From Lineus longissimus (Eukaryota > Nemertea > Pilidiophora > Heteronemertea > Lineidae), in assembly GCF_910592395.1 (NCBI RefSeq), contig NC_088310.1, forward strand, positions 24,383,491 through 24,447,490: a stretch of 64,000 nucleotides of DNA, written 5' to 3'. The translations under genes and the position numbers were made by a program. The notes beneath the pieces were generated by a model. That model made no database searches. It was given only the letters and a program-made list of their open reading frames with translations, and had not been told where the DNA came from. Below, one piece after another: positions 27,940-57,268 of the stretch; positions within the stretch are counted from its first letter, which is position 1; each line of letters starts with the position of its first letter.

Positions 27940-29917
27940 AGTGACGAAATTGAATATTGCTAGGGAATTGATCCTAATTTCATTTTTAAAACCTAATTAT
28001 AAAATATTATTATTGTAAGAACAGTGTTACATAAACACTGTCAGTTCAATTCATCGCCCACGTGATTGAACAGATACTGACGATATGTTGTAAGGTTTCG
28101 ATGGAGATTATCAATCAGCTATCGCAAACTTGAAGATAAACTTAGAGTCTCTATGGAGGTATTCAAAATAGACAACTTCTTTAGAAAACAATTCAGCAAA
28201 TTGACGAAATTGACGAAATTTTACAATTCTGATCATTGTGACAAATGGACACTTGCCAATAGGTTCGAGTATTGGGTTAAAATTTACAGTCCCCGATCGG
28301 AAATGACGTAGTTTGATCGCATTCAACTATAAATCCATTGAACAGTGGTGCTTCGTTAGTCAACCGATGACCTTTTTTGGGGTGTGATCGGGGATTGTAA
28401 ACTCGTTCCGAGTATTGTAAAATGTCGTAACGAGGTTCTCATGTCGTAACGAGGCTCTCATCCAAATACAAAACAACCAAGTAAACAACGAACGCGTCAC
28501 ACAAGATAACCGAATGAAGTGACACAAGTGTCGCCCAATCTAATAAAAGCGTTACCCAATGCGTTAAAGTGCCAAATGTGTTCAGAACAGAGTGAAAGCG
28601 CCGAGAGATTCCGACTGCTCGTCACCCCAGGCAACCAATATGGCTTACCGCTCGTCATTCCAACGCGACTCATCCATAAACTATATTAATTATAAAACAG
28701 ATTGCAATTTGTAAATGAGGGTACTCATTTTAAGGCTGCATATCAAATGGTTTGTGGGTGATTAGAGCCGTCTCGTGGGCCCAGTTCTGATGGGAGCAAT
28801 AACGAAAGTGCTTTCCAAATAAATTTGGACCAGAAACTGTGCACATTCAGTGTTGTTGATGCGCTTGTGGCGAGGGTCTAGTTATAGTGCATTGCACTAT
28901 ACTAACAATGTGTACCTTACCACCAATAAATGCAATTATCAGTGGTAAACTTCCGGGAGGACTGCGCATGTTCATTCCCGCCACGTCTTTTTGCAGACGA
29001 ATTTCGGCCATTTCAAAATGGCCGAAATTTATTTTCGCAAACTATCTTTTTGGACATGACAAAATAGTGATGGTGTCAAATTGACACAGAAACTTCTATA
29101 TTTGACATAACTGACACTTTTTTTACACTGAAATGACATACACCGGCTTTCTTTGTGCCCCACTCTATCTCCGGCCTAAATCTTTCAGGGCAACTAAAAA
29201 TCAATTTATACGAAAGTTGCACTTACCTTTTCACGATCATCACAAAAATGTACGGACTAACAAATCCAATACCGAACTGTTTAAACGCATCACGTTAGGT
29301 ACATATTATTTGGTCCATGCACACTTCTATATTCCGGAAATGTCGCAACGAGTGAAATACGAGTCGCGCTGACCCTTCTCTCGTACAATATGAAACGCCC
29401 TTCATTGATAGGCCGGTCTCAAAGTGCTGAGCCTCCGTTACGCTGTTCAAAATGTGTTTAATGCGATAATATTAACCTGATTATTGTATAATCATCACGA
29501 TTTTGTAAACTGAAATTATTATGACATGTTTGTTTCTGATGTCGTCTGAGTTATATTCACCTTCTAAGATATTGACAACTTCCAATCGTTTGCGATTGAA
29601 GACATTCTACACGCAGCTGCATTAATCGATAGTAATAATCGCTTTCGAAGAGGACATATTTCAACAATGCGAATGCCTTCAAGAGAGAGACCACGCCGGC
29701 TATTGAATAAATTCATGGAAATGCGAAATACGAAATTTTATTACACTCTAACCGTACAGAATATAGTTACAATTTTTAAATTGCTATAAATGTAGTATAT
29801 CATGCATATGAACATAAGATTCCATTTATACATGTATGTGATTGATTTATTGTTGATAAAAATATAGAAAACGACAAAACTGACTCCTCATAGCGACCTC
29901 TTCTTGTTTCTTTGCAG
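27940..29917 (+). other. Spacer or intron 5' of the prohormone-4-like gene
   Basis: I searched this stretch by eye for an exon with a signal peptide and an IDLSRF-like peptide ending in phase 1, and found none. It contains short direct repeats (TTGACGAAA twice at about 28202-28220; TGTCGTAACGAGG twice at about 28424-28455) and a perfect hairpin at 29000-29029. Confidence 0.45.
29000..29029. repeat. Perfect 14-bp-arm hairpin with 2-base loop
   Basis: AATTTCGGCCATTT and AAATGGCCGAAATT are exact reverse complements separated by CA, giving a near-perfect 30-base palindrome. It could be a cruciform-prone site, the centre of an inverted-repeat element or a protein-binding palindrome. No function can be assigned. 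Confidence 0.8.
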
Positions 29918-32070
29918 ATTATAACCCCTGTGACCTACTGGAGAAGCCGTTCCCCTGTAAAGATGCAACCCAATGTATCCCCATGAAGTTCGTCTGTGAT
30001 GACAACTACGACTGTGACGACGGCAGTGATGAGGCGCGTGGTCTGTGCACAGCCAGTAAGTTTCACCAATACCTTAGTTTTTTAGTTTTTTCTTGGCACT
30101 GATATGTCTTCAAGATAGGCTGTTCCCCTAGTACTACATGTGTATCACACAGGGCTGGCTGCCTCCAGCTAGGTTGTTCCCCAGTACGCCTACCATCAAC
30201 ATCGAGGAAAGATTATAAAGCTGAGGTTGTCCGCAAGTAGGCCTAGAATTCTCCTATCCAGGAAAACTTGAGACGTGATTTGCTTTGAGTAAAGACAGAA
30301 TTCAGTGCAGCTGTCTCAAGCCCATTGAAATAGGCTTCGATCCGCTACGCTGTACACTGGTAGTGGGAAGGGCCAGCCCGTTACTGTCTCAGTGGCAAAG
30401 GCCATTTATGAAGAACATGGTCCTCCCCAGAAGATAAACAATATAGGGCCACGGTAATCCGTATCACAATTGTCACATCTTTACGAGCCCGTCACTGTCA
30501 AGTGCTGCTATTTGAGCTACGACATTGGAACTATAGGCTTTGCCTAAAATTTAAAAAATCACGACCGTTTTTAGGGCGGGCGACGATTTATAGCAGGAAC
30601 CCCAAACTTGCCTAGTTGATCCGTTATCCATAAGGCATCTAGTGCAAGTATGAACAGAGACCGAGCCCGTTCGACCCTTCACACGTTTTTTACCCGACCC
30701 GGACTCGACCCGGGTCGATTCCGCCGATTTTGGATAGTGGAAAAGGGGCTTATGAGACATGGCCACTCAGCACAGGCAACCTACGACTCATTATAGTTGA
30801 TAATGAAATACATAGTGCGTTTCTGTGTTGTCAGCGTTGCGATGAGACGTGCAGAGGCTTGCCCCTAGAATATGAAAATTTAAAAAAATCCTGTTTTTGA
30901 ATGTTACGATCAAAACCGTAAATTTCCCTCTTGATGAACTCTCCCATAAAGATTGATAACCAAGTATATTTCTCACAATACATGATGACTTCCTTATGAG
31001 TCGGAAACTTTCAGAATTGTTCTTGAATCGGTTTTTTACATGGATCGTGTAAACTTATCACTTGAGACAGTTCCATATTGTTGTCCTTAATGACTTTAGA
31101 ACTTTATTTGACTTCGAGAACATTTATTGGTCACCAGAAGTGGGTTTAAGAGCTGTTGCTGAGAACCGTTAGAACATTTTTATTGATCTCGAGAAATGAC
31201 AATGGTACAGGTTTGTAATATTTGACTCTATCACAACAATGCTCTTTAATAGAACACTCTTAGAAATATATAGTTTTTCCAGGGGGTTTCCCTGGCAACT
31301 TTATATGAAACCTTTCTGTGTTTCCTATAGAATAGCCAAAAGCTGATGGAGACGGAATACCTCTTAAGGTTTTTCTAGAAAACTGGTTTTAACCCTTTCC
31401 AGTTTTCCAAGAGCTCATAAACTGTGAGACGAGGTATGTTCTACTCTGTGGAATAGAATGGTTACTTTTACATTTACATTTGCCTTTGAAAAAAAACTTC
31501 GAAAAACCTTGTTTCTAGGAGTGCACGGGTCGCAACTGTTCCATTGATTTAAAGGGATACAAATATACAAAGTACACCCTTAATCTCCTATATCATCTTT
31601 TTTCAGTCCGACGTCCCCCAGCAGACGACATGAAAAAATTCATTACCAAAGAAAGAGCCTGGATCCTGCCCCATCTCCTCGGCAATCAAAACGTGGAAAA
31701 AATTGTGCATTACCTGGCAGGTATGTCTTCCTTGAGGTGAAGTAACCATCTATCAGACTGGCGTCCTTTTAGAGACCAGTGATTAGGGCCTAGCTAGTTA
31801 CCTGGAGTGGCTTGAAGCATCACACACTTCATTTACGGAACTAGTTTGTATTATGATCCTTTGTTCATTTTGATTTCAGTCAGCCCATCGATAGATGTTT
31901 TCAGAAGGCGCGTTGGACTTAACAGGGAGCAGTACAAAAACCTGCAACTTGCTTTGAAGGCAATTCAAAACGGCGACGAAGAAGCACTGCAGAAGATGGG
32001 AATGCCTGATAACGCCTGGGAAGAAACCAAGTTCATGTTCGGCCGCTTGCTGAAGAGTGGTTTCTACTGA
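29918..32070 (+). CDS. Prohormone-4-like (IDLSRF-type) neuropeptide precursor, partial 5'
   Basis: Three coding exons join in phase: 29918-30055, 31607-31720 and 31880-32070 (stop TGA). Each intron has GT-AG ends, all in phase 1. The first exon encodes an LDL-receptor class A module with six cysteines and the calcium-site signature CDDGSDE, then GLCTAS. The next begins RRPPADD, and the last ends ETKFMFGRLLKSGFY. Insect prohormone-4 has the same order: an N-terminal IDLSRF peptide, an LDLa module, LCTAAKRPPVEE, then a helical C-terminal region ending near VNTGF. The product would be a secreted precursor processed in neurosecretory cells. The exon with the signal peptide and the amidated-peptide region is missing from what I can recognise; it must end in phase 1 and lies upstream. 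An AATAAA at 32516-32521 follows the stop by about 450 bases. The family assignment is strong; the 5' structure is unknown. Confidence 0.88.
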
Positions 32071-34078: not shown

Positions 34079-35008
34079 GCGAAATTTTTTTCTGCAGGAT
34101 ACTTCTGCCATAGTGTACATCTGACAGCCAATCAGAATTCAAGGCAAGCACGTGTCTTTGTTGACATCATCTTTCCACATGGCGCAATAATGTCAACAAT
34201 GCCACGTGTTCTGATAATCTTGGAAAGAACAAGTTAGCAAATGGTTAGAGGAGTATATTAGCTAAAATATATTTATTTGCAGTATCTTAACATGTATTTT
34301 CATTGTCGAGTGGACTGTATTTATTGGACTTGTCTGTTAAAGGCGCACTGTGCTCGGCAAAATAGCCGAGGTTGAATGTTTATCTGTCAACCGTGTAACT
34401 AGTTCTGCTGTATATGCATAGGTGGCGCCACCATTCAATTTATTTTGTTTGCTTGTCAAAATGTGTTTTATACAATTCAACAATGTTCAAACTACCAAAA
34501 TAGGCCTGATACCTTCAACAGCAGACATCGGATACACTGTCCCTTTAATAATTATCAACATTGGCAACACTGTCAGTGTCACTGCCCCTTAAAATTTCAC
34601 AAATCGCGAGACATCGGATACACTGTCCCTTTAATAATTATCAACATTGGCAACACTGTCAGTGTCACTGCCCCTTAAAATTTCACAAATCAATGCATGC
34701 ACTGCAATGTAGCGATCAGATCAGCTGATGCCTCTTTTGTACGCATAATATCATCAATTTTACAATGAATCTGTGCAATTCATTCCTAAACACTACGACA
34801 CAAACCTTGAGTTGAGCATAATTGGGGTCAGACAATGAACTATTGTCACATTCACAGTTGAAGTGGCACTCGGCATGCGACTCGGTATCGTCCATTGTAT
34901 TTGCATTATCATGCATAAATAAACAGTGTGACGTCAAAGATCGCGCCAATTGTGATTGGCTGTCAGATGTACACTGTGGCAGAAGTATCCTGCAGAAAAA
35001 AATTTCGC
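34079..35008. mobile_element. Fold-back (inverted-repeat) element, about 0.93 kb
   Basis: Arms at 34079-34139 and 34948-35008 are reverse complements at 59 of 61 positions (both contain a T7/A7 run next to CTGCAGGATACTTCTGCCA). Weak similarity extends outside them. The interior has no coding frame but holds an exact 86-bp tandem duplication. This is the structure of a non-autonomous DNA transposon or fold-back element. I did not recognise target-site duplications. Confidence 0.65.
34523..34691. repeat. Two-copy 86-bp tandem duplication
   Basis: The unit starting AGACATCGGATACACTGTCC at 34523 is repeated from 34609, and the copies read as identical over the 83 bases of the second. It lies inside the fold-back element. 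The identity implies recent duplication or an assembly duplication. Confidence 0.85.
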
Positions 35009-43010: not shown

Positions 43011-45291
43011 CTACCAATTATCAAGGAAGTCAAATCCGGTCAGTGTCTTCGACTTATCACTACCAGTTGAAGTTGTATCATCCTGGAAAGACAATCAACG
43101 TATTAAGGAAAACTATTCAAGAATAAATATAAGGGGTAATAAATAAACTGAAATGGTTTTACAGCAGAATTAGCTCAAATTTTATTCTGGCTGCAATCGT
43201 TCATGAAACAGTGGTAACTCCAGAAATATTGGAAAGGGGGGCTGCAGCCCCAGCCTTGGGAAAGTCAAAGGTGCGATCTTGGGGGTACCTCTCTAATTTC
43301 ACTCATGTCACTATAATACTGTAATATTTACTGTACAACATATGGTTGAAAATACACCAATTTTACTTACTGGTGCCTTTTTGTTATCAATGGTGCCATG
43401 TGGCTCATATTCATCATAGAAAGGTGTGGGCTGGGTAGTAACAACAGTACTCGTGGCCTTCTTAAATGGGGATTCGTCTGGAAGAAGAGCTGTTGATGAC
43501 GAGTTGCTACTTGAACTATCGTGTTTCTTGCGAACAGGTTTGGCAGCTTTTGCTGGTGGTTTGGAATCAGTGCTACCAGAAGAATGTAGCAAGGCAGTGG
43601 TCTCATCCTTCTTAATGCTTCGAATTGGAGAATTTTCAACACTGCTGTCATTCGAAGCCACAAAGTTATTGTTCCTGTTCACTTCAACAAATTCATACGA
43701 GTCGTCACACTCAGGTTCGTATTTTGGTTTGGGTTTGGTAGCAAGTGGTATCGGAGGTGGCCTCTTGTTTCCGGAAGGAGCAGCATTTGATGACTTAGTT
43801 GGAGTATTCACCATTTGCCTACTGGGGGCATTTGCGACTGGTTTCTGTGGAGTTTTTACCATGGGTTTGGGAGCAACCTTTACCAAAGGCTTTGTTTCTC
43901 TTGAAAATACAGGGCTACCAACAGGACTGTAGTTAGGGGAAGATTCCTCAGACTTCTTAATGGATTCACTGTCACCAAAGGGTTCAGGTGGGCTATTAGC
44001 TTTTTTCTTTGAATCGTCATCATCGTTGGAGCCAAAGGAGATGTGGAATTTCTGGAATAGATCATCAGCCTCTTCATAGTCTTGAGACTTATCAGGTGAA
44101 GCCATGATTTGGTCAACAGGAGAAACATCATTCATACCACTGTCAGGAGAAGCTTCGCCACATTCCTCATAATTAGCAGATTCTTCACCACACTCTTCAT
44201 AATTAGCCGAGTCAGCAAGATCTTGCTCCATTTCTTCAGGAGTCTTGCCCAAATCGTTCATATCCAGTGGATATCCAGAATCTCTGCCTCTATCAGCAGC
44301 GAGGAATGGAGAATCCCAAATACTTTTACCCTGTTTTGCAGGATTGAAATTGATTTTCTTCAAGTCAGGTGATCTTGGTCGTCTCTTTCGAGCCTTTGCA
44401 GCTTTCTCTTTGTCTTCCTCTGTCTCAAACAATGGCATGTCCAGTTGACTCTGTAAAATAGGATGTTTTAGAAAGTACATGTATAAGACCATGTATTATC
44501 AATGATGTACATTGCAAACATGTTTCATTTTGTGTCATTTCAGTTATTAGCATTAGCAACATCCTATGATGGATGGGATATCAGAAAACTAACTATGTCC
44601 CTGGCATTTGGTTATTCCAAAGAGGAATATTCTCTCAATACAGCAAACTCGGACTGTGAATGAACAGAAGTAGGTCTTTACTTGCCTTGGTCTCCCAACA
44701 AAATGGTCCTGAATGTTCATCTTGCCATGTCCGAAACTGGAAAGAAAACCAAGAGATCACAAAACAAGATTTGTACATCGTGCAAGCAAGAAAGTGCATG
44801 AAGTGGGGGCTGGAAAATAAACCTTTCATTCAAAGAGGTGTACGGTATACGGTATGGTAGGCCTCTGGGAATCTGCCGATATGAGAATTTTAGGTTGATG
44901 TAACAGAGTTCTAAATAAGGCTGGTGCCAAAGGCAAGCACTACGCATGATGCGCACACACATGTATGCAAAAGTCACTGTGTCTAGGGCTTAGGCCGACA
45001 CAGCTTGATCGAACTTACGTCATCATCGACAATAATTTTCTCTCCACTTCCTAATTTCAGTTTAGGAAAGTATTCTGGTGGATCCTCCCAACGGGAATAG
45101 GTTTTGTAGTGCTCAAGGATCTCAGCCTTGATGACATATTCATCAACAACAGCATCCCTTTGTTCAAAACTCATCTGCTCCCATTCAGCCCCATACATGG
45201 ACCGGACAAGCTCCTGATCCTGCATCACCTTCCTGGCAAGAGGTCCCAGGGATGAAAAGTATTCAAAGACTAATTGGTCTGTTTCAGTCAT
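43011..45291 (-). CDS. C1orf198: C1orf198 homologue (DUF4706 family), 491 aa
   Basis: Four phase-0 exons on the minus strand: 45291-45019, 44736-44686, 44450-43371 and 43082-43011 (stop TAG). The N-terminus MTETDQLVFEYFSSL, then ARKVMQDQE and YGAEWEQM, matches human C1orf198 (FTYFSSL, ARKIMQDKE, YGPEW). Exon 2 encodes TWQDEHSGPFCWETK and the last exon ends TGFDFLDNW; both are near-identical in the human protein. The middle exon is a long low-complexity region absent in that form from the shorter human protein (327 aa). It holds a basic KARKRRPRSPDLKK, a duplicated SANYEECGE unit, acidic patches and a proline-rich KRPPPIPLATKPKP. No signal peptide or membrane segment is seen; function unknown. 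ATG at 45291 is chosen because it opens directly on the conserved block. Intron 2 needs a GC donor (AAG|GCAAGT), giving WETK-SQ as in human. Confidence 0.92.
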
Positions 45292-46242
45292 TTTGCTGTT
45301 TTGGCTGAAGATATCAAGCAAAAAACCAAAATCTATTGATTTTTCGTCAATTTTCACAAACTTCCTGCTTCTTGTCCACCATTTTGTTTTCGCAGTAAAT
45401 TTTTCGATATTTTATCATAAATTACACTAATTAGAATAGTGACACAATAGTTATTCCAGTCATCAATTTTAAAAAATCTTTTAGTCGTTATATGTGTAAG
45501 AATATTATTTAAATTGCAAGAAATCCGCAATAGTGGACTTCTTAGGTGCGAAACTTTCAAGATGTCAGCGCCCAGGGCTTCATTTTCCGATGGGGTTCGT
45601 TTCAAATTTATCTTTTTACTCCTCAGTTCCTTTCAAAAAATAGTATTTGTGAACTTCCGAATGAAGATTAATTGTGTCTCCTTCAGATAAAACCATCTGT
45701 AGTGGTGTAGCTTGCGTAAATTAGTAGATATATCCAAAACAATTTTGTGTCCCATTCGCATGTGTGGTCGAGCATGCAACACATGCAACACACATGTATG
45801 TCGGCTATGTAGTAATGACTGATGTACCGTACATACTGCTGTGCATGGGCGTCCTTTCAGTTGTATATTGATCAGGTTGATAGCGAGTTCATTTCACACT
45901 ACCCATTAATTTCATTTCAGCAGTAAGAACTAAAATTTCCCTCATCCTCAGTCGAGTCGGAGTGGTGTGGCAATAAATAGGCCCTCTGCCAGATATGTAG
46001 GTACCACCTGACCTCGGCTCGGGTCGGGAAAACAAGCTATCCTGTCAACTGTGCAGCCTGCCTGAAGAATTCAGAATTTTGGTGGTGGATTGTACAATTT
46101 GCACATAATTGCTATGCGCAAACCGTACCATCATCATATCTGCATAATCTGGGACCAAACTTCTGACGTGTCATACACACAGATTTCACCATAACTATAT
46201 GTAACCATATTTTATTTGATTTTGCATTTTTCTTTTGCACAG
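45292..46242. promoter_or_regulatory. Shared spacer between divergent C1orf198-like and PUS10 genes
   Basis: The two genes point away from each other, so this stretch should hold both promoters, the 5' UTR of the former and the first exon of PUS10. A candidate PUS10 start is ATG at 45562-45564 (MSAPRASFSDG), which could be spliced at GGG|GTTCGT in the required phase 0, but the donor is weak. No TATA box was seen next to either gene. Confidence 0.45.
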
Positions 46243-49200
46243 TTGCAGCTGCTTGTGGGAGAAAATGAAAGCATTGGTCAGATCTACAAGTCACTTCGTG
46301 AGTGGGGCTGCTGCCCTATGTGTTCATTGAAGTATCTTGGAGAAAAGCAACAAGAAAAGTTCACATTTTCACAGAAGGTAGGTTTTGTTCAGTTCTTTAC
46401 AGAAATACTTGTGCTTCATGTGGCCTTAACTACGTCATCCATGTACCAGCCTAACTAACGAAAACATTGGAAGGTAATAGATTAGAATATCTTGATCCGA
46501 ATAACCTTGCCATTTCCTAATCATATTAAGACAAAGCCTGGTTCTTGGTGTGCAGTCCAATCCTTACCTATGTAGACCAATTGATTATGATAAATACCAG
46601 CATCCACTTTGCAAAAGATTAACAGAAATCTCTGATCTAAATATTAATTTCTGTTTTATCATTGCATTTCACTTTCAGGAGATCCATGCATATTTTTCAA
46701 GTCTATGTCCAGCCCCAGTGCCAGCATTTGTTGAGGACACTTGCTGCACTTGTCTTGGCATATTGCAAAAACTCACCACAAAAGAGTTTTTGATGGAGAT
46801 TGACAAAAAGGTTAAAGAGGGAAATAATGTATACACAGATTTCAGAATTGCGATCAGCCTTCCTGTTGCTGCTATTGTACGAGAGGTGCGTATGAAAAAA
46901 CCCAGAAAGGAGTATGCTGAATGTGGCATACTGCCGTAACTTTTTATCAGCTTACTTCAGTTACCCACAGTGCAGCAATTCTGTTTCATTGCGTTGCAAC
47001 TTAACCCTACCTTTATGGAATCTTACATGTTTGTACTTGTTAAATTCATTTTAAACAACAAAATGTCCATGTATCATTTACTGCAATGTAAGAATAACAG
47101 TTTTTTTAACTTGTCATTTCAGCATGCAATTTTGGTACTCTTGATTGAAAACTTTCCGTAAGTGTTAGTTTCGCAGAGAAGTTGTTAGTATTCTTGTGTG
47201 CACAAAATTGAACAATGGCTACGTTTTCCAGTGACACTCAGTTCATTAAAGATTAACATTCCACTATAATTATGATGAAAAAAGAAACTACATTACAGGT
47301 CAGTTTTAAAGTGTTGACAATTTCAAACTTTCACAAAAACAAATATTCACTCTTAAGTTTGTAATTAACTAAGTGCATGTTCTCCAAGAAAGCAACAAGT
47401 AAAAAATATTGAATATTTTTAGCAAGCCGGGTCATCTCTTTTATGATAACTAATGATAGCTTTTTATCCAGGCTCACCTACAAGGTGCAGAAGGAAGATG
47501 ACTTTGTGGCGATAAAGGATGCTTGGAGATGGGTTTGTCTCGATCAGCTGAGTGCAATACTGAAGATTCCATGTGATGCAAAGGTACCCACTACTAGGGA
47601 GGTTCCATTGGGATGGTAAAATGTATACATGTAGAAGTAATAATATTTTTGACTCCACACAATCTGCTGAAGAAGTCAGCAAACCAAAGTTTTCTCTGCC
47701 TCAGTGCCTAGAGTGCTGTTGATATGGGATAGAAGAAGAAGATAGATGCAGTCCAAGCCAATCCTGAATGTTTTGGTGGTAGATTTTCTGAGATGCATTA
47801 TGTGCCTTTTACTTTTTTCAGAGTCCCTTTGACATCACACTGAACTTTGAACATGAGGGTACCAAGAAGGAGTGCGATTTCCTGTAAGTATTCTTCTGAT
47901 CTTGTAATATTTGATTTGTAATAAAAGTAACCTAACCTAATGATGAGGATACTGATTTAAAGGCAAGAAGAACTTGTATTGTACCAAAGGATCTGAAACA
48001 AGTCATTTGAATCCATGCCTTTATCAACCTGTTTCTCTTTTCCAGCAAGTTTATGTGTCCACATATATTCCAGGAAAGAAAGAACAACCGCGTAAGTTTT
48101 GATCACACATATACACAACATGAGTAGTTTGTGTTCTTTAATACACCACCAATCCATTTCTAGGTTGATGGTTTTTAACTAGCAGTGAACCCTAACACCA
48201 TTGGCAATTGAATCCTCATAGTAACTATCTAAAAGGTGGCTGAACACAAATTCCCTCTCTTTCAGTCCTTGAGCACCGCAGATGAAGGTTCTCATAGTGC
48301 ATCAGCCAATGCATATGGTACTATGCATTAGAAAACTACCTGGATGAGTCATAGTGTTGTCAACCAGCAGCAAGCAACTCCTTTTCTTGAAGAAGTGCTG
48401 AATATTTAAAACTTTACTAACCTCAATTTCAACTGTGGTAGAGATTTTGTCTCAAAGCTTTATGAGCATTATATTTATAGGTATGTCTTCCCAGGTGTCT
48501 TGCCAGTCAAGGAGTTTAGTTCCAGATACACAGACTTAAGATCTACAGTCACCGGGATGACAGCCTGTGCCAGAGAACCAAATGAAGGAGAAACTCCCAA
48601 AGTAGATTTCCTTTGCAGTAGCTAAAAAACCACTCAATTTTTTTGACATCAACATTTTCAGTTTGGATGGGAAATGTTCACCAGGATGAACGTCCGCAGA
48701 GCTGTAGCCACAGTCAAATATGCGTCGTTCAAACAGTAAGTGGATGTACATTTTCCATCTTCCAAACTCAATGCATTCATCATAAGAATGCAAATATTCT
48801 ATATAAAAGAGCATTTGACCTGCTCTGGCAAAAGTAGGCACTTGTCACATTATAGAGAAGTAGAGAAATAAAAGGATTTGTTCTTTTTTAATAGGAGATT
48901 GAAAAAACCATTATCTCTTTTGCTAGTTACTCCCAGTGCCCACCAAAAAAGCTCCAAGGCCCAGCTACATGCGTCGAGATCGTTTGTTCACATGAACCTA
49001 TTTATATTTGTGGTAAGTGCTTCAATTGAACATCTCCATCAAAGGCACCCTGACAACTGACAAATGCTGTCCTTGATAGCGAGGGGTCCTGCTTGTAGAA
49101 GTCAAATCAAGTATAGAAATTACCAATTTGGGACCAAAATCATTGTCCCTAATACAGAGGGTGCCCTGTACAAACCAGATCTCCCCCAGTATGAAGTAAA

Positions 49201-50920
49201 AATTTATCTGATTTTGATTTTAATTTGGAGCACTATCAAATTCCTGTCTAAAACAAGCATACTATACAAACTGTATTTTCTTTCAGGCCGGTATAACAAA
49301 TACAGTCGTGAGTTGAGCCAGACTCCTTGGATCATTGACGGAGTCAGAAAAACAGAGTTTTCAGTTCAAGAAAGGATCTGCGGGGCATTGGAGGAAGCAA
49401 TACAATGCAGTGACCACCGATTCTCATCAGCGGGCCGGGAAGATGTTGATGTCAGAATGCTTGGTACTGGGCGTCCTTTCATGGTGGAGTTCATTAAACC
49501 GAAAATAGTCACATTCTCTCAAGCTGAAATCACCAAACTTCAGAACCAGATTAATGCGAATGCAAAGGACGTCAGAGTGACTGATTTGCAGATGTGCACA
49601 AAGGAAGACTCCGGCACTTGGATAAAGTCTGGCGAAATGACCACTTGTAAATCATATACTGCACTTTGTTGGATGAAGGAAGTCGTGAAGCAATCTGATC
49701 TTGACAAACTGAAGGAAATCAAGGTATGTTGATGGAGTCTTTGCAGGAAGAACTACAGCACCAAACAATAAGACTTTACTGCAGGAAATGTTTAGATTGA
49801 GCACAATGTTACCGAGGTCAGCATATTCTTACTAAGATGATCATCACTTCACCCTGAAGCCCATGGTAATGCAGTATGGAGAATCTCGCTTTATGGACAC
49901 CATTGCCTGGCAGACACCGCAACCTTACAGATATGACCGTTCAGTCCCGACTTTTAGCTCACCAGTGGGGAGCATCTGTCGGTCTTCGTTCGTTAGCGAA
50001 GCACGTTTTGGGGGAAGATTGCTAAAACTTAACATTATGGAAATTTTTGGCAGTATGCCCAAACATTATGTTTGGTGTATTAACCCTTTTACCTGTGAAA
50101 TATGTTTACAGGTATGCTCTTATTTGCAGGATCTCACACTTGACCAGAAAACACCAATCCGAGTTCTCCACAGACGTCCCCTGGCTGTGAGAGAGAAAAT
50201 GATTCACGGCATCTCTGCTACACGCGTGGATGACCATCTCTTCACAATGCTGATCAGGACGGGAGCTGGAACGTATCCTTTGGGTTGAAAGTTGACCTTT
50301 GGTTTATGATTTCAATGTTTACCTTATGAATAGATTTGATACTTTCCTTTTCTTTAACTATCGCGATATTTTATTCATACAGTATTCTCATTCTATGCCG
50401 TAAGCAAATGTTGCCAATAGCTTATATAAAGTCCAGTTAGCTCCTGAAAAACAATGCTACAAATACAATGACTCCGAGGTAAAGGTTATTGATTGAGTCT
50501 TGGTGTGCTCATTGTATAAATTGTCCAAAAAGTGATTAAAATACCTTGACCCTTCCTTAAGATACATCAAAGAGTTTGTCCATGGAGACTTTGCCAGAAC
50601 TAAACCAAGTCTGAGAACGATTCTCGACTCTGAATGTGACATACTTGAACTTGATGTTGTGGTAAGTTGTCCCAATCTTCTTCAGGGCTTTTCTGGATCA
50701 GGTATTTCCATCGGTTAATTGGTAGTGTTGCTAATTATGAAAACTGCAACTGATATTCATTTCACACCATACCAACTATAAGACCATTTCTGTTGCTTGT
50801 ATTACCAAGAACAAGGACCTCTGACAAGCAGTAGTTTTTATATTGTGTTCAGGACTAATCATGTCTTTATCATTATTGCAGGAGATTGAGCTTGACTGGC
50901 CACCAAAAATTGATGCTTAA
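46243..50920 (+). CDS. PUS10: PUS10, tRNA pseudouridine synthase Pus10 (first exon not identified)
   Basis: Twelve exons join in phase: 46243-46377, 46679-46885, 47123-47157, 47472-47583, 47822-47883, 48046-48091, 48662-48735, 48927-49012, 49287-49723, 50130-50272, 50562-50661 and 50882-50920 (TAA). They encode 491 residues; human PUS10 has 529. The N-terminal THUMP-like part has the paired zinc-type cysteines GCCPMC and CCTC. The catalytic domain opens GRYNKYSRELSQTPWIIDG and holds GREDVDVR, whose first Asp (codon 49442-49444) is the expected catalytic residue. RVLHRRPLAVR and YIKEFVHGDF follow, and the end is LDWPP. The enzyme makes pseudouridine 54/55 in tRNA; human PUS10 also aids microprocessor activity in the nucleus. 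No start codon precedes the first exon in frame, so the initiator lies upstream. The intron 50273-50561 is U12-type. The gene converges on the metallothionein-like gene. Confidence 0.97.
50273..50561 (+). other. U12-type (minor spliceosome) intron of PUS10
   Basis: The donor is GTATCCTTT, the exact U12 5' splice-site consensus. TACCTTGAC at 50542-50550 matches the U12 branch-point consensus at eight of nine positions, with its branch adenine 12 bases before the end of the acceptor AG. The join AC|A restores Thr-Tyr-Ile-Lys-Glu-Phe, the conserved PUS10 reading. Confidence 0.9.
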
Positions 50921-52524
50921 AGGAGGACACTGTCAATATCAAGGAACAAGACATTCTTTTCCTACACTTCATGAAGTTCCTTTGAAGATTGCCCCATTGG
51001 AAACACTATTCATCGACTGGAGCAGGCTATCTCCAAATGTCAGGGAGGATGTGTACACAAAAGCAGAATAAACTATCACTCTACCCTAACGTACATGTAC
51101 TGCAAGGCCCTGGGCCTAATCAATGTCAATGGTTTCAATTGACACTATAGTATTTGGCGTAATAGATGTCTTTGCAGTTGGCATCAACACGAAATTCAGG
51201 TTTATTCATATGGAAGTAAAAAAAACGTTGTCAATCAGATACATACATGTATCTAGCTGCTTTACTGCTACATAGTGTCTGGTTTAAAATAAGAGTTTAG
51301 TTGTCTTAATGTATTACTGCATCCGACATGTCAGAACCGACAGCAATGTACATCTCTTGAACAGTAAATGAGTAAAATCACATCCTTTTCGATTTCTTTC
51401 AATGCAATAACAATCCACTGAGGACTGTTCTCATTTATACCAGACAGTGTGAGGTCACTAAACCCCTGATAAAAAATGTGTCTTTCAACTGGCTCTGAGT
51501 GACATGCACAGATGCTGCCTGGAGGCCTCAAACAAAAGTGCAGAGGGGGAGATAATTCCGACCAAACCCAAAAACTTCTGGAGACTTTGAGACAGCAAGA
51601 CCATATCCATAGTAGTTTGGGATACTTTCACAACCTATCCTGGATGGAGACATTGGAACAACCAGAGTACATGCAGTTGGAGACACTTCCACCACTCCTG
51701 CCATTGCCAATTATTAGTCAAACAAGACAAGGCAATTATTCAAACAAGACAAAATATCCATTTTTACTTCAAGCAATGAGTGTATTTCCGATATCAGTTT
51801 GAAAATATACATATTGGGTAGGTTAAAGATTGCTAACATAATCAGTAATATATTTCACATGTATCAGTGAGAATATTGACAAGAATGATAGCTTAAGGCT
51901 TTAGCAATACCGGTATCATGATACCAAAGGTAATCAAGAAATAGGTGTAGGCCTACAAGTTAAATGTTACGGTCTCGGTTGGTATTAGTGTCTAGGATAA
52001 TGCATGTATGTACATGTACATTGCGCTATCAGTAAGTTTTCAGACACAAGTGGCCCGTATTCACAACTGTTAATTCATATATAACAAATAGCTGAAAATT
52101 ATTACTTATACATATACTGGCGGCTGAATAGAAAGTACTGAGAAATATACTTCACACTAGCTGTATCCCGGTGTTCGTCACTGTCACGGTGAACAACTAG
52201 GCTACTTAAATGTTTACTAAATAAAGGTCACAAGTTCTCAATAATAGAGAGTGCTGAGTCAGGTTAATTATTGAGAAACTAGTCAGTTAGATTATTTCAT
52301 TCAATTTCATTTATTCATTTTCAAAAACGTATGAATTTTTGTGAAATATGTATTTTGAACAATGAAACGGCTTTTTAACGTCCATCACTTCGCCTATTCG
52401 AAAGTTGTATTATTCAAAGGAGATACTCTTAAATCATAAAAATTACAATACTATACTGCCAACACACCATGCACTGCTATAATCAAGGGTCACAAAAAGG
52501 AACTTCAATATTTAACAGCATCCT
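50921..52524. other. Convergent 3' ends of PUS10 (+) and the metallothionein-like gene (-)
   Basis: AATAAA on the plus strand occurs at 51067-51072, about 150 bases after the PUS10 stop, and at 52220-52225. On the minus strand AATAAA lies at 52315-52310, about 210 bases after the metallothionein-like stop. Intervening frames have no support. Confidence 0.5.
52310..52315 (-). terminator. Polyadenylation signal of the metallothionein-like gene
   Basis: TTTATT on the plus strand reads AATAAA on the minus strand, about 210 bases past the stop codon at 52525-52527. Confidence 0.5.
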
Positions 52525-55500
52525 TTACTGACCAGCCTTGCCACAGCTTGCACCGGACGACTTGCAGCAGCAGCAGCAGCAGGTACACTTCTCACAGGTA
52601 CATTCACCACCCTTGGCACAGGCTTCACAGCACTTGCAGCCACCGGCACAGCAGCTGGACTTGGCCTTGGACTTGCAGCAGCAGCAGCAGGTACACTTCT
52701 CACAGGTGCATTCACCACCCTTGGCACAGGCTTCACAGCACTTGCAGCCACCGGCACAGCAGCAGGACTTTGCCTTGGACTGGCAGCAGCAGCAGCAGGT
52801 ACACTTCTCACAGGTACATTCACCACCCTTGGCACAGGCTTCACAGCACTTGCAGCCACCGGCACAGCAGCAGGACTTTGCCTTGGACTGGCAGCAGCAG
52901 CAGCAGGTACACTTCTCACAGGTACATTCACCACCCTTGGCACAGGCGTCACAGCACTTGCAGCCTCCGGCACAGCAGCAGGACTTTGCCTTGGACTTGC
53001 AGCAGCAGCAGCAGGTACACTTCTCACAGGTGCATTCACCACCCTTGGCACAGGCGTCGCAGCACTTGCAGCCATCGGCACAGCAGCAGGACTTTGCCTT
53101 GGACTTGCAGCAGCAGCAGCAGGTACACTTCTCACAGGTGCATTCACCACCCTTGGCACAGGCTTCACAGCACTTGCAGCCACCGGCACAGCAGCAGGAC
53201 TTGGCCTTGGACTTGCAGCAGCAGCAGCAGGTACACTTCTCACAGGTACATTCACCACCCTTGGCACAGGCGTCACAGCACTTGCAGCCACCGGCACAGC
53301 AGCAGGACTTGGCCTTGGACTTGCAGCAGCAGCAGCAGGTACACTTCTCACAGGTGCATTCACCACCCTTGGCACAGGCGTCACAGCACTTGCAGCCATC
53401 GGCACAGCAGCAGGACTTTGCCTTGGACTTGCAGCAGCAGCAGCAGGCACACTTCTCACAGGTGCATTCACCACCCTTGGCACAGGCGTCACAGCATTTG
53501 CAGCCGTCAGCACAGCAGCAGGACTTCGCCTTGGACTGGCAGCAGCAGCAGCAGGTACACTTCTCACAGGTACATTCACCACCCTTGGCACAGGCGTCAC
53601 AGCACTTGCAGCCACCGGCACAGCAGCAGGACTTGGCCTTGGACTTGCAGCAGCAGCAGCAGGTACACTTCTCACAGGTGCATTCACCACCCTTGGCACA
53701 GGCGTCACAGCACTTGCAGCCATCGGCACAGCAGCAGGACTTTGCCTTGGACTTGCAGCAGCAACAGCAGGCACACTTCTCACAGGTGCATTCACCACCC
53801 TTGGCACAGGCGTCACAGCATTTGCAGCCGTCAGCACAGCAGCAGGACTTCGCCTTGGACTGGCAGCAGCAGCAGCAGGTACACTTCTCACAGGTACATT
53901 CACCACCCTTGGCACAGGCGTCACAGCACTTGCAGCCTCCGGCACAGCAGCAGGACTTGGCCTTTGACTTGCAGCAGCAGCAGCAGGTACACTTCTCACA
54001 GGTGCATTCACCACCCTTGGCACAGGCGTCACAGCATTTGCAGCCGTCAGCACAGCAGCAGGACTTTGCCTTGGACTGGCAGCAGCAGCAGCAGGTACAC
54101 TTCTCACAGGTGCATTCACCACCCTTGGCACAGGCGTCGCAGCACTTGCAGCCACCAGCACAGCAGCAGGACTTTGCCTTGGACTTGCAGCAGCAGCAGC
54201 AGGTACACTTCTCACAGGTGCATTCACCACCCTTGGCACAGGCGTCACAGCACTTGCAGCCTCCGGCACAGCAGCAGGACTTGGCCTTTGACTTGCAGCA
54301 GCAGCAGCAGGTACACTTCTCACAGGTGCATTCACCACCCTTGGCACAGGCGTCGCAGCACTTGCAGCCACCGGCACAGCAGCTCGACTTGGCCTTTGAC
54401 TTGCAGCAGCAGCAGCAGGTACACTTCTCACAGGTACATTCACCACCCTTGGCACAGGCTTCACAGCACTTGCAGCCGTCAGCACAGCAGCAGGACTTTG
54501 CCTTGGACTTGCAGCAGCAGCAGCAGGTACACTTCTCACAGGTGCATTCACCACCCTTGGCACAGGCGTCACAGCACTTGCAGCCGTCAGCACAGCAGCA
54601 GGACTTTGCCTTGGACTGGCAGCAGCAGCAGCAGGTACACTTCTCACAGGTGCATTCACCACCCTTGGCACAGGCGTCACAGCACTTGCAGCCTCCGGCA
54701 CAGCAGCAGGACTTGGCCTTGGACTGGCAGCAGCAGCAGCAGGTACACTTCTCACAGGTGCATTCACCACCCTTGGCACAGGCGTCGCAGCACTTGCAGC
54801 CACCAGCACAGCAGCAGGACTTGGCCTTGGACTTGCAGCAGCAGCAGCAGGTACACTTCTCACAGGTGCATTCACCACCCTTGGCACAGGCGTCGCAGCA
54901 CTTGCAGCCACCGGCACAGCAGCAGGACTTGGCCTTGGACTTGCAGCAGCAGCAGCAGGTACACTTCTCACAGGTACATTCACCACCCTTGGCACAGGCT
55001 TCACAGCACTTGCAGCCACCGGCACAGCAGCGGGACTTGGCCTTGGACTGGCAGCAGCAGCAGCAGGTACACTTCTCACAGGTACATTCACCACCCTTGG
55101 CACAGGCGTCACAGCACTTGCAGCCTCCGGCACAGCAGCAGGACTTGGCCTTGGACTGGCAGCAGCAGCAGCAGGTACACTTCTCACAGGTGCATTCACC
55201 ACCCTTGGCACAGGCGTCACAGCACTTGCAGCCGTCAGCACAGCAACGACTCACACAGCAACTTTCTGGAAAGATAAAGTGAGGACATATTGTTAAATTT
55301 GTATCAGTATTTTCAACGGGGTTATAATTCAGTGAAGTGGTATCATGCACTGGCCGGTATCATGGAGTTTGAAATATCCTAGGATAGGATGTCCTGGGAG
55401 CAAAGGATTCTTTTATGCGCTGTCATAGCCTCAGTAGAACCACTTTACCATAATCCATCAGAAAACAATGGGGCCAGACACTTTTTCCAGGGGGATATCA

Positions 55501-56198
55501 TTTTCTACTTCTACACACCGGGTCCTAAATGCATGTCAAATGCTTGTGAGGCTACATTCATTATTATAGGCTACAATATGCAGTGACACTCTAAACATTT
55601 GTTGGCTAAAACCATGTAACTTTGGTTTTAGTTACTCTGCCAAGGCCTACATTTGTACAGGATGAGCATGAAGTCTCCCCCTAAGAAAATATTGATCAGG
55701 CAACCACAAGAAAAAGAGAGGGACAATCCAATATCATGGCCCAAGGCTGGTTGATGTGGCATATAGCGGCAGTTGGGCAATACAAGACAATTAAAATATC
55801 TTACAAATTATAATAATGTTTTGTGGTAGTATCAATGATATTGGTCCCGCGAGCCCCATTAGGCATTGACTTTTCCAGGGTGTGAAGACATGCTAGTAAA
55901 AGAATGACCTTTACAGGCCTACAGATTGGTGCTACACCCCAGGCCACTACACTTCCAAATTCACAAAACATACCCCTGGCCACTCGCGAGATTATATCTT
56001 TATTGAGATATTTGAGAAAAAGGAATTATACGCCAAAAGCTGAGTGATGTAGCCAACACAAAGTAAAGTGTTCAAGGATACAGTTAACTGGTTAATGCTT
56101 AAGAGTAAGAGTAACCAGTCTAATGGTGGTTACCCTAAGGTTATTGCAAGCATAAAGTACTTACTTGTCTCGGTATCCGATGCTCCCTTTGATGCCAT
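52525..56198 (-). CDS. Giant poly-repeat metallothionein-like protein, 924 aa, 25 repeats
   Basis: Two exons on the minus strand: 56198-56165 (MASKGASDTET plus one base) and 55265-52525 (stop TAA), joined A|AA across a GT-AG intron. The protein is a 17-residue leader, 24 repeats of 36 residues and a final longer one. Each unit reads CCCAGGCKCC, then DACAKGGECTCEKC, then TCCCCCKSKAKS, with small changes (AGG/ADG, D/E, K/Q). I count 375 Cys in 924 residues. There are no aromatic residues or histidine, no signal peptide, and many Lys. CC, CxC and CxxC clusters next to KSKAKSCC recall the lysine-linked cysteine clusters of metallothioneins, cytosolic proteins that bind Zn, Cd and Cu through thiolates. 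Expanded metallothioneins are known in some snails and in Oikopleura; this repeat and its five-Cys runs are not ones I recognise. Metal-response elements upstream support the call. A cysteine-rich structural protein is the main alternative. Confidence 0.88.
52567..55248 (-). repeat. 108-bp tandem repeat array inside the metallothionein-like exon
   Basis: Copies 1-24 are exactly 108 bp each (36 codons), running from 55248 down to 52657, and copy 25 starts at 52656. There are no indels between copies. Changes are few and recur across copies, so the array is homogenised. Copies 12-14 and 15-17 share a three-copy pattern, offset by 324 bp. Because 108 is a multiple of three and most frames lack stops, long spurious frames also appear on the plus strand. 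Confidence 0.97.
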
Positions 56199-56712
56199 CG
56201 CTAGTTGTTCTCTGTAATGTTTTTCGTCAGAAGTCAGCTTCCAAATCTTGAAGTGTATTTCAGAAAGTTTCCTCGACCTCTCCAGCAAATTTGGTTTCAC
56301 AATGTAATTTAAGAGAACGCCTTCCCCTTATATCTGTCTGATATGTGAAACTGTGAAACGAGTGCAGAAAACTGGGGAAAACCGTTCAAGGCAATCTATT
56401 AATTGAAAGGGGTATATGGTAGAGAGACCCCGATAAGTTTTAGTTAGATTTTACTTAATCAATCGTGAAGTTCAATATAACTCAATACTCAATCGTTCCT
56501 AAGACTGTGGTCGAGTATACCGAATCGTGATTTGGTAAATGCAGGTTCATTTGAGCAAAATTCCCCAATTTCCATAAACCTAACACATCTGTGTGAAATG
56601 GAACTCACCCAATATGGGAATCACGGTGTTATGTGAAACTGCAATGTGAAGCATTGACGTCAGCAAGGTCGAAACGTGAAATAGGGCCGGGTGCAAAGCT
56701 TAAATGAGCGCA
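56199..56712 (-). promoter_or_regulatory. Metal-responsive promoter: MREs, CRE and TATA-like box
   Basis: Reading the minus strand: TGCACCCGGCCC (56695-56684) matches all 12 positions of the metal-response element consensus TGCRCNCGGCCC bound by MTF-1. Core TGCRCNC sites also occur as TGCGCTC (56712-56706) and TGCACTC (56366-56360). TGACGTCA at 56655-56662 is a perfect palindromic CRE. AGATATAAGG (56336-56327) is a TATA-like box placed about 25 bases downstream of the nearest MRE, predicting transcription start near 56300 and a 5' UTR of about 100 bases. A further core, TGCACTC, lies at 57027-57021. Confidence 0.75.
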
Positions 56713-57268
56713 ACACAGACGACTCCATTGTGCGTAACAGGTATCAATGAAGTTCACAAACTTGTGTTGTCGAAGATAATGTCAAGATCTTGTACTTGGG
56801 CAGTGATGAATCATGTTATTTCTGTGAAAAATGAAGACATTTTTTCGAAAAGCTGACTTGAAATTGTATTACTCGCATTTCGATCGAAACTTTTTATTTC
56901 ACGATTCAACCTTACACACCTTGTCAAAATGGATCCATCGGATGACAGGAATACCTCCGGTTCGTGAATCTGCAATGGGAATACAAATGTAAAGATCAAT
57001 AAAACGTGAAACAGTGTGCTGAGTGCAAAAACTGTGACCTGAATGACTGTTGGCACTTGATCAGGTGATTGTGATTTATTTTCGTCCAATTGAGATGACA
57101 TTTACATACTTTCTGGAATGTTCTCAATTTGGATATCACCGCATATGGAGACCAATGGTTGAAATGTTAAGAATCTATTGGGGAAAATGAAACGACACTT
57201 TTGAAAATATCCGAAGTCTCCTCTTGAACAAAACAATGAGCCATTGTCTTTCTTTCTTTGGGGGTGTT

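What the first reader, a model, noticed from the sequence alone, without database searches (positions are those of the whole stretch)
52525..56198. Giant metallothionein-like gene of 25 tandem 36-residue repeats
Seen: a two-exon gene encoding 924 residues, 375 of them Cys, with 24 exact-length repeats plus a longer terminal one. Known: metallothioneins are usually 60-80 residues; multi-domain expansions are reported in some gastropods and in the tunicate Oikopleura. Inference: at about three Cys per divalent ion such a chain could hold on the order of 120 ions, making it a very high-capacity metal store. This repeat type is not one I know.
Basis: partly seen in the sequence, partly recalled or inferred. 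Interest (0 to 1): 0.88.

Follow-up and report, generated by a model that had tools for sequence, protein, structure and literature searches.

The report
Giant repeat metallothionein-like gene, ribbon worm
A gene in what is most probably the bootlace worm genome encodes a 924-residue, 41% cysteine protein made of 25 near-identical 36-residue units; it most likely acts as an unusually large intracellular metal store, about twice as long as the longest metallothionein we found described.

Summary
On the minus strand, exon 1 (56165-56198) and exon 2 (52525-55265), joined by a GT-AG intron, give 924 residues, 375 of them Cys, in 25 units: 24 of 36 residues, the last of 43. Fourteen columns are Cys in 25 of 25 units. 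Of 15 variable sites among 24 units, 11 are third codon positions (pN/pS 0.15): the Cys frame looks constrained. That test does not exclude the antisense Q-rich frame; gene anatomy does. A TATA box, four same-strand MRE cores and AATAAA fit a metal-induced gene. Contig lengths fit the HiFi assembly of Lineus longissimus, so an assembly fault is unlikely. No relative appeared in Pfam, NCBIfam, PDB or 5.8 billion proteins; human MT2 was found where run as control. Longest metallothioneins whose length we saw in print: 399 and 319 residues. Best reading: a metallothionein-like multi-domain metal store with a new ~15-Cys domain, about 5 divalent ions per unit, about 125 in all (inferred). Metal binding and expression are untested.

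The parts
56165..56198 (-). Exon 1 coding part (ATG at 56198; MASKGASDTET plus one base), donor GTAAGT
55266..56164 (-). Phase-1 GT-AG intron, 899 nt; acceptor TTTATCTTTCCAG
52525..55265 (-). Exon 2: rest of the 924-aa protein with 25 units of 36 aa (last 43 aa), stop TAA at 52525-52527
56326..56334 (-). TATA-like box GATATAAGG, 128 nt before the ATG
56360..56366 (-). MRE core (TGCACTC), 26 nt upstream of the TATA box
56689..56695 (-). MRE core (TGCACCC)
56706..56712 (-). MRE core (TGCGCTC)
57021..57027 (-). MRE core (TGCACTC)
52310..52315 (-). Polyadenylation signal AATAAA, 210 nt past the stop

Best explanation
The gene encodes a cytosolic, metallothionein-like multi-domain metal store. Each 36-residue unit (CCCAGGCKCCDACAKGGECTCEKCTCCCCCKSKAKS) would fold round about five divalent ions (Zn or Cd) through its 14-16 thiolates, and the Lys/Ser-rich SKAKS stretch would be the linker, so the protein is a string of about 25 metal-thiolate clusters holding about 125 ions. 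Transcription would be raised by metal through MTF-1 at the MREs, and capacity per transcript grew by tandem duplication of the unit with homogenisation. Shown: gene model from sequence, repeats, Cys conservation, constraint, promoter motifs. Inferred: expression, metal binding, stoichiometry, metal preference, induction, string form.
For: 924 aa, 375 Cys; 14 columns Cys in 25 of 25 units while columns 1, 5, 11, 25 and 31 vary. Among the 24 full-length units (unit 25 left out for its different end) 11 of 15 variable sites are third codon positions (binomial P 0.0018); pN/pS 0.150. No aromatics, no His, no Asn, 142 Lys, no hydrophobic leader; a high Lys/Asn ratio is called typical of Cd-selective snail MTs (PMC7084494, passages). 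Four MRE cores TGCRCNC within 0.85 kb upstream of the ATG, all in gene orientation; the 7 of 1,185 overlapping 1-kb windows that hold four are, by arithmetic on their starts, this promoter. TATA box 26 nt from the nearest MRE. Multi-domain MTs with repeat-proportional binding exist in Oikopleura (PMC8283569, passages), and a 14-Cys mollusc domain binds 5 Zn (PMC9781358, part 1 of the discussion). HiFi libraries sheared to 12-20 kb (PMC8593623, part 1 of 2 of the text) against a 2.7-kb array; among 24 units only 15 and 18 are identical.
Against: No match to any metallothionein profile, PDB chain or database protein. Local alignments to human, rat, Helix and Alinda MT segments are weak: of ten pairs, three are reached by fewer than 5% of full shuffles (Alinda 9, Helix 22, human beta 31 of 1000), and none once the Cys places are kept (lowest 55 of 1000). 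No transcript, protein or metal data. The MRE is a short degenerate motif (33 cores in the window outside the array, these four included). Five Cys in a row are outside the motifs named as usual (CC, CxC, CCC; PMC9781358). The AlphaFold2 model of 100 residues has pLDDT 55 and says nothing.
Confidence: 0.8

Rival explanations
1. A disulfide-cross-linked structural protein (keratin-associated-protein-like, or a sperm or secretory-granule matrix) that hardens a tissue by oxidation of its Cys.
For: Extreme Cys content and near-identical tandem units also occur in such proteins (recalled, no call). No tissue data exclude it.
Against: No hydrophobic leader; no Pro, no Tyr and only two Arg, unlike the keratin-associated and Cys-Gly-Pro sperm proteins I recall; 15% Lys; MRE cluster and TATA box suggest metal-inducible rather than structural expression.
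Confidence: 0.1
2. A variant within the metal-store reading, so its odds overlap with the best explanation: a copper(I) thionein rather than a Zn/Cd one, as in the repeat-built Cu-thioneins of fungi. Capacity would then exceed 125 ions.
For: A long repeat-built fungal MT is a Cu-thionein (PMC4755600, abstract). Dense Cys packing suits Cu(I) (inference).
Against: Lys-rich and Asn-free composition resembles Cd-selective rather than Cu-selective snail MTs (PMC7084494, passages). Composition is a weak guide across phyla.
Confidence: 0.2
3. The array is decayed, untranscribed, or translated in another frame; five of the six frames are open over long stretches of it.
For: One search lists long open frames on both strands; the antisense Q-rich frame (916 codons) shares third positions with the Cys frame and has pN/pS 0.207. 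No transcript was seen.
Against: The Q-rich frame has no Met in 916 codons, and start codon, splice sites, TATA box, MREs and AATAAA all lie on the minus strand. The other four frames have pN/pS 1.9-2.7. No frame shift or internal stop in 25 units.
Confidence: 0.05
4. The copy number is an assembly artefact of a shorter or longer array.
For: Tandem repeats are a classic problem; neither raw reads nor the alternate haplotype could be read here.
Against: HiFi libraries sheared to 12-20 kb against a 2.7-kb array; 24 of 25 units distinct. The most exposed part is one block copy: units 13-16 against 16-19, 4 differences; 2 of 500 permutations of unit order do as well. Rests on the species being Lineus longissimus.
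Confidence: 0.04

Closest known systems
OdiMT2 of the tunicate Oikopleura dioica (PMC8283569, passages)
   Same: Long multi-domain MT of tandem units; binding grows with unit number; repeat number differs between populations (3 to 7 repeat units).
   Different: 399 aa and 123 Cys in the six-repeat form (length of the seven-repeat Oregon form not seen; about 465 aa by my extrapolation); t-12C/12C pairs. Here 924 aa, 375 Cys, 36-aa units of 14-16 Cys with a five-Cys run.
9md-MT and 10md-MT of the snail Alinda biplicata (PMC7084494, passages)
   Same: Near-identical tandem metal-binding domains; Lys-rich, His-free; transcribed and raised by Cd.
   Different: 287 and 319 aa, 81 and 90 Cys, repeated N-terminal domain plus a distinct C-terminal domain; intronless; no convincing sequence relation.
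Delta domain of FcaMT1 of the mollusc Falcidens caudatus (PMC9781358, introduction and part 1 of the discussion)
   Same: A 14-Cys domain, lineage-specific, thought to be of de novo origin; binds 5 Zn.
   Different: One copy of 45 aa joined to a beta1 domain; sequence not compared, since it is not printed in the sections read.
TmMT of the fungus Tremella mesenterica (PMC4755600, abstract)
   Same: Long MT built by repeated Cys blocks, high capacity.
   Different: 257 aa, six- and seven-Cys blocks, Cu-thionein, 10 exons.

Membership tests
Metallothionein (general, by character) | Cys-rich with CC, CxC and CCC motifs | tested here: met
   375 of 924 residues are Cys, above the ~15-30% of the classical definition
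Metallothionein (general, by character) | Small size (<100 aa) | tested here: not met
   924 aa; accepted multi-domain MTs also break this rule
Metallothionein (general, by character) | Few or no aromatic residues and His | tested here: met
   0 Phe/Tyr/Trp, 0 His; the feature is recalled, and some gastropod MTs carry aromatics
Metallothionein (general, by character) | Binds transition metals in thiolate clusters | not testable with these tools
   Needs recombinant protein, ESI-MS, ICP
Metallothionein (general, by character) | Metal-responsive promoter (MREs) | tested here: met
   4 cores within 0.85 kb upstream of the ATG, all in gene orientation; motif consensus recalled; induction untested
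Pfam PF00131 Metallothio | Profile match above gathering score | tested here: not met
   No match at E<=1 for exon 2 or at E<=10 for a unit; human MT2 control 81.3 bits
Gastropod md-MT (Alinda type) | Repeated N-terminal domain of the Alinda Cys pattern plus a distinct C-terminal domain | tested here: not met
   Units hold 14-16 Cys and the C-terminus is a last copy of the same unit with a short tail; Alinda 10md-MT has 90 Cys in 10 domains
Gastropod md-MT (Alinda type) | Sequence homology to the Alinda/Helix domain | tested here: inconclusive
   9 and 22 of 1000 full shuffles, 93 and 288 of 1000 Cys-preserving shuffles do as well; the same test misses human alpha against beta (288 of 1000)
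Oikopleura 12C-domain MT | t-12C/12C Cys spacing | not tested
   Sequences not printed in the passages read; only Cys counts were compared

The most novel reading that the evidence does not exclude
A nemertean-specific metallothionein class: a ~15-Cys domain with a five-Cys run, of independent origin, amplified into the largest metal-thiolate protein known (about 125 ions per chain), with unit number evolving by unequal exchange and so serving as an adjustable metal capacity that may differ between alleles and populations.
Probability: 0.4. Interest if true: 0.8.

Novelty: new variant of a known kind. Interest (0 to 1): 0.68.

Why it matters
If it binds metal as expected, it has 2.3 times the length and 3 times the Cys number of the longest metallothionein whose size we saw in print (399 aa, 123 Cys; about twice a seven-repeat form extrapolated by me), has a domain type without detectable relatives, and comes from a phylum for which our paper searches listed no metallothionein work. 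It offers a clear case for two questions: whether metallothionein domains arise repeatedly de novo, and whether repeat number is a tunable capacity. It could also be a ready-made modular, high-capacity metal binder (inference).

Tried and rejected
Family and structure searches: Pfam, NCBIfam and PDB gave nothing for exon 2 or for the N-terminal unit; no human MT2 control was run for NCBIfam. Protein search: exon 2, 5,911 candidates, 0 at E<=0.001; its first 100 residues, 380 candidates, 0 at E<=1. Control human MT2: 195 of 198 candidates at E<=0.001; the 120 that were listed bear vertebrate names, so coverage of invertebrate MTs was not shown. A local phmmer test shows that such queries find true copies of this protein despite the Cys bias. 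The references used begin at 55266, so their first residue reads the last intron base (E in place of K); the rest is native. Viral and prokaryote contigs: 4 and 59 pattern matches, none confirmed.

Paralogues in the genome: two protein searches found only this array (24 matches, 25), but each scored exactly 25 candidates, so the array may have filled the list and a diverged, normal-sized MT cannot be excluded. In the window plus 100 kb on either side, searched in pieces of 10 kb, no other stretch has 8 or more Cys in 30 residues; stretches across piece ends could be missed. A COX1 search to fix the species, a PF00131 search and a fixed DNA pattern did not complete because the tool was busy (COX1; PF00131: 62, 66, 70, 74, 76, 78, 82, 85, 86; pattern: 63, 79); the protein search failed before one search was answered.

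AlphaFold2 on 100 residues: mean pLDDT 55.3, not used. Rfam and tRNA scans of the window: nothing. Literature. Nemertea plus metallothionein returned one unrelated earthworm paper; one search listed 30 of 312 papers, and those 30 have zero mentions of metallothionein. Most subscription papers are not in the library, so nothing here shows that such a protein is unknown in print outside it.

Full report
What is there. The finding is exact. The gene lies on the minus strand: ATG at 56198, exon 1 56165-56198, intron 55266-56164 (donor GTAAGT, acceptor CTTTCCAG), exon 2 52525-55265 with TAA at 52525-52527. It encodes 924 residues, 92.3 kDa, 375 Cys (40.6%), 142 Lys, 105 Ala, 95 Gly, no aromatic residue, no His, Asn, Pro, Ile or Leu. 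After MASKGASDTETKSCCVS come 25 units; all 24 spacings are 36 residues and the last unit runs on for 43. At DNA level the array has period 108, 24.8 copies, no indels.

The unit. The consensus is CCCAGGCKCCDACAKGGECTCEKCTCCCCCKSKAKS. Columns 2, 3, 7, 9, 10, 13, 19, 21, 24 and 26-30 are Cys in 25 of 25 units; column 1 is Cys in 21, Arg in 2 and Ser in 2. The other variable residues are G/D at 5, D/E at 11, T/A at 25 and K/Q at 31, apart from the changed end of unit 25. The five-Cys run is written as pure TGC in all units except one TGT in unit 14 and a sixth TGC in unit 25. A TGC tract could slip, so its constant length of five in 24 units suggests selection or homogenisation (inference).

Is it a gene under constraint? 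Among 24 units (unit 25 left out), 15 of 108 sites vary, 11 of them at third codon positions of the Cys frame (P 0.0018), with pN/pS 0.150; four other frames give 1.9-2.7. The antisense Q-rich frame of the plus strand shares the same third positions and gives 0.207, so this test does not separate the two. That frame has no Met in 916 codons, while start codon, splice sites, TATA box, MREs and AATAAA all belong to the minus strand.

History. Mean nucleotide identity between units is 94% over 108 nt (25 units). Among 24 units only 15 and 18 are identical. The best four-unit block match is units 13-16 with 16-19 (4 differences; 2 of 500 unit-order permutations do as well). This points to tandem growth in blocks of about three units.

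Regulation. Four MRE cores (TGCRCNC, consensus recalled) lie at 56360, 56689, 56706 and 57021, all in gene orientation and all within 0.85 kb upstream of the ATG; the window outside the array has 33 in all, these four included, 0.54 per kb. Seven of 1,185 overlapping 1-kb windows hold four, and by their start positions these seven are the promoter itself (the last step is my arithmetic). A GATATAAGG box at 56326-56334 lies 26 nt from the nearest MRE. The AATAAA is at 52310-52315.

Organism and assembly. The window is G000:C3:24383491-24447490 of a 391,118,348-base genome in 30 contigs. The bootlace worm assembly is 391 Mb, 32 scaffolds, 19 chromosomes (PMC8593623, part 1 of 2 of the text read). 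Of five contigs checked, C2 (29,188,318), C3 (29,083,594) and C19 (15,888,539, the size printed for chromosome 18) match printed sizes to 0.01 Mb; C4 (25,594,645) is 5 kb short of the printed 25.60; C1 came back as 29,440,000, my own start value, against 29.45, and is not trusted. I take the species as Lineus longissimus, very likely but not proven; the COX1 check did not complete. Its HiFi libraries were sheared to 12-20 kb, so reads should span the 2.7-kb array.

Neighbours. Pus10 exons on the plus strand (within 46505-50285) and a DUF4706 exon on the minus strand (44986-45411). No other dense Cys stretch was found in the window or in 100 kb on either side (pieces of 10 kb).

Relatives. None found. 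Pfam and NCBIfam: 0 families. PDB: 0. Protein database of 5.8 billion: 0 of 5,911 candidates for exon 2 and 0 of 380 for its first 100 residues, while human MT2 finds 195 of 198 there, its own Pfam family and PDB chains. Of ten pairwise comparisons with known MT segments, three are reached by fewer than 5% of full shuffles (Alinda 9, Helix 22, human beta 31 of 1000), but none when the Cys places are kept (lowest 55 of 1000). The control pair Alinda against Helix stands far out (0 of 1000), yet human alpha against beta does not (288 of 1000), nor does Alinda against human beta (77 of 1000), so this test can miss distant kinship.

How it most likely works. A cytosolic metal store: about 5 divalent ions per unit by analogy with the 14-Cys delta domain (5 Zn; PMC9781358), hence about 125 per chain, or 375/3 = 125. 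Repeat number raises binding in Oikopleura MT2 (PMC8283569, passages). Long snail MTs are reported, from preliminary unpublished data, to be string-like (PMC11101346, passages). Lys-rich and Asn-free composition leans to Zn/Cd (PMC7084494, passages). All of this function is inferred.

Known or new. The longest MTs whose length I saw in the papers are 399 aa (Oikopleura, six repeats; a seven-repeat form exists, length not seen), 319 aa (Alinda) and 257 aa (Tremella). A 2025 paper gives the range as up to 'over 300' (PMC12508003, passages). A search for 'longest', 'largest', 'giant' or 'multi-domain metallothionein' held 11 papers, 10 listed, none titled for a nemertean. MTs are described as polyphyletic, with domains arising de novo (PMC9781358), so lack of sequence kinship does not speak against the function. 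Multi-domain MTs are a known kind; the domain, the size and the phylum are new as far as these searches go. I file it as 'works like a metallothionein'; membership of PF00131 was tested and not met.

Noticed in passing
56199-57100: Nine TTTCAC/GTGAAA hexamers in the promoter of the Cys gene against at most 5 in 575 other sampled 902-bp windows; two sit 8 bp apart between the nearest MRE and the TATA box. The motif was chosen after seeing it.
   Followed up: partly
56655-56662: A TGACGTCA palindrome (CRE/bZIP-like, name recalled) between two MREs; 5 in the whole window.
   Followed up: no
52532-55282: Antisense Q-rich open frame of 916 codons through the array without any Met; its third codon positions coincide with those of the Cys frame.
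   Followed up: partly
29884-32070: LDL-receptor class A exon (PF00057) followed by open frames that look to me, from memory, like the prohormone-4 neuropeptide precursor; those frames have no Pfam match.
   Followed up: no
34523-34691: An 86-bp unit present twice in tandem, 100% matches by Tandem Repeats Finder.
   Followed up: no
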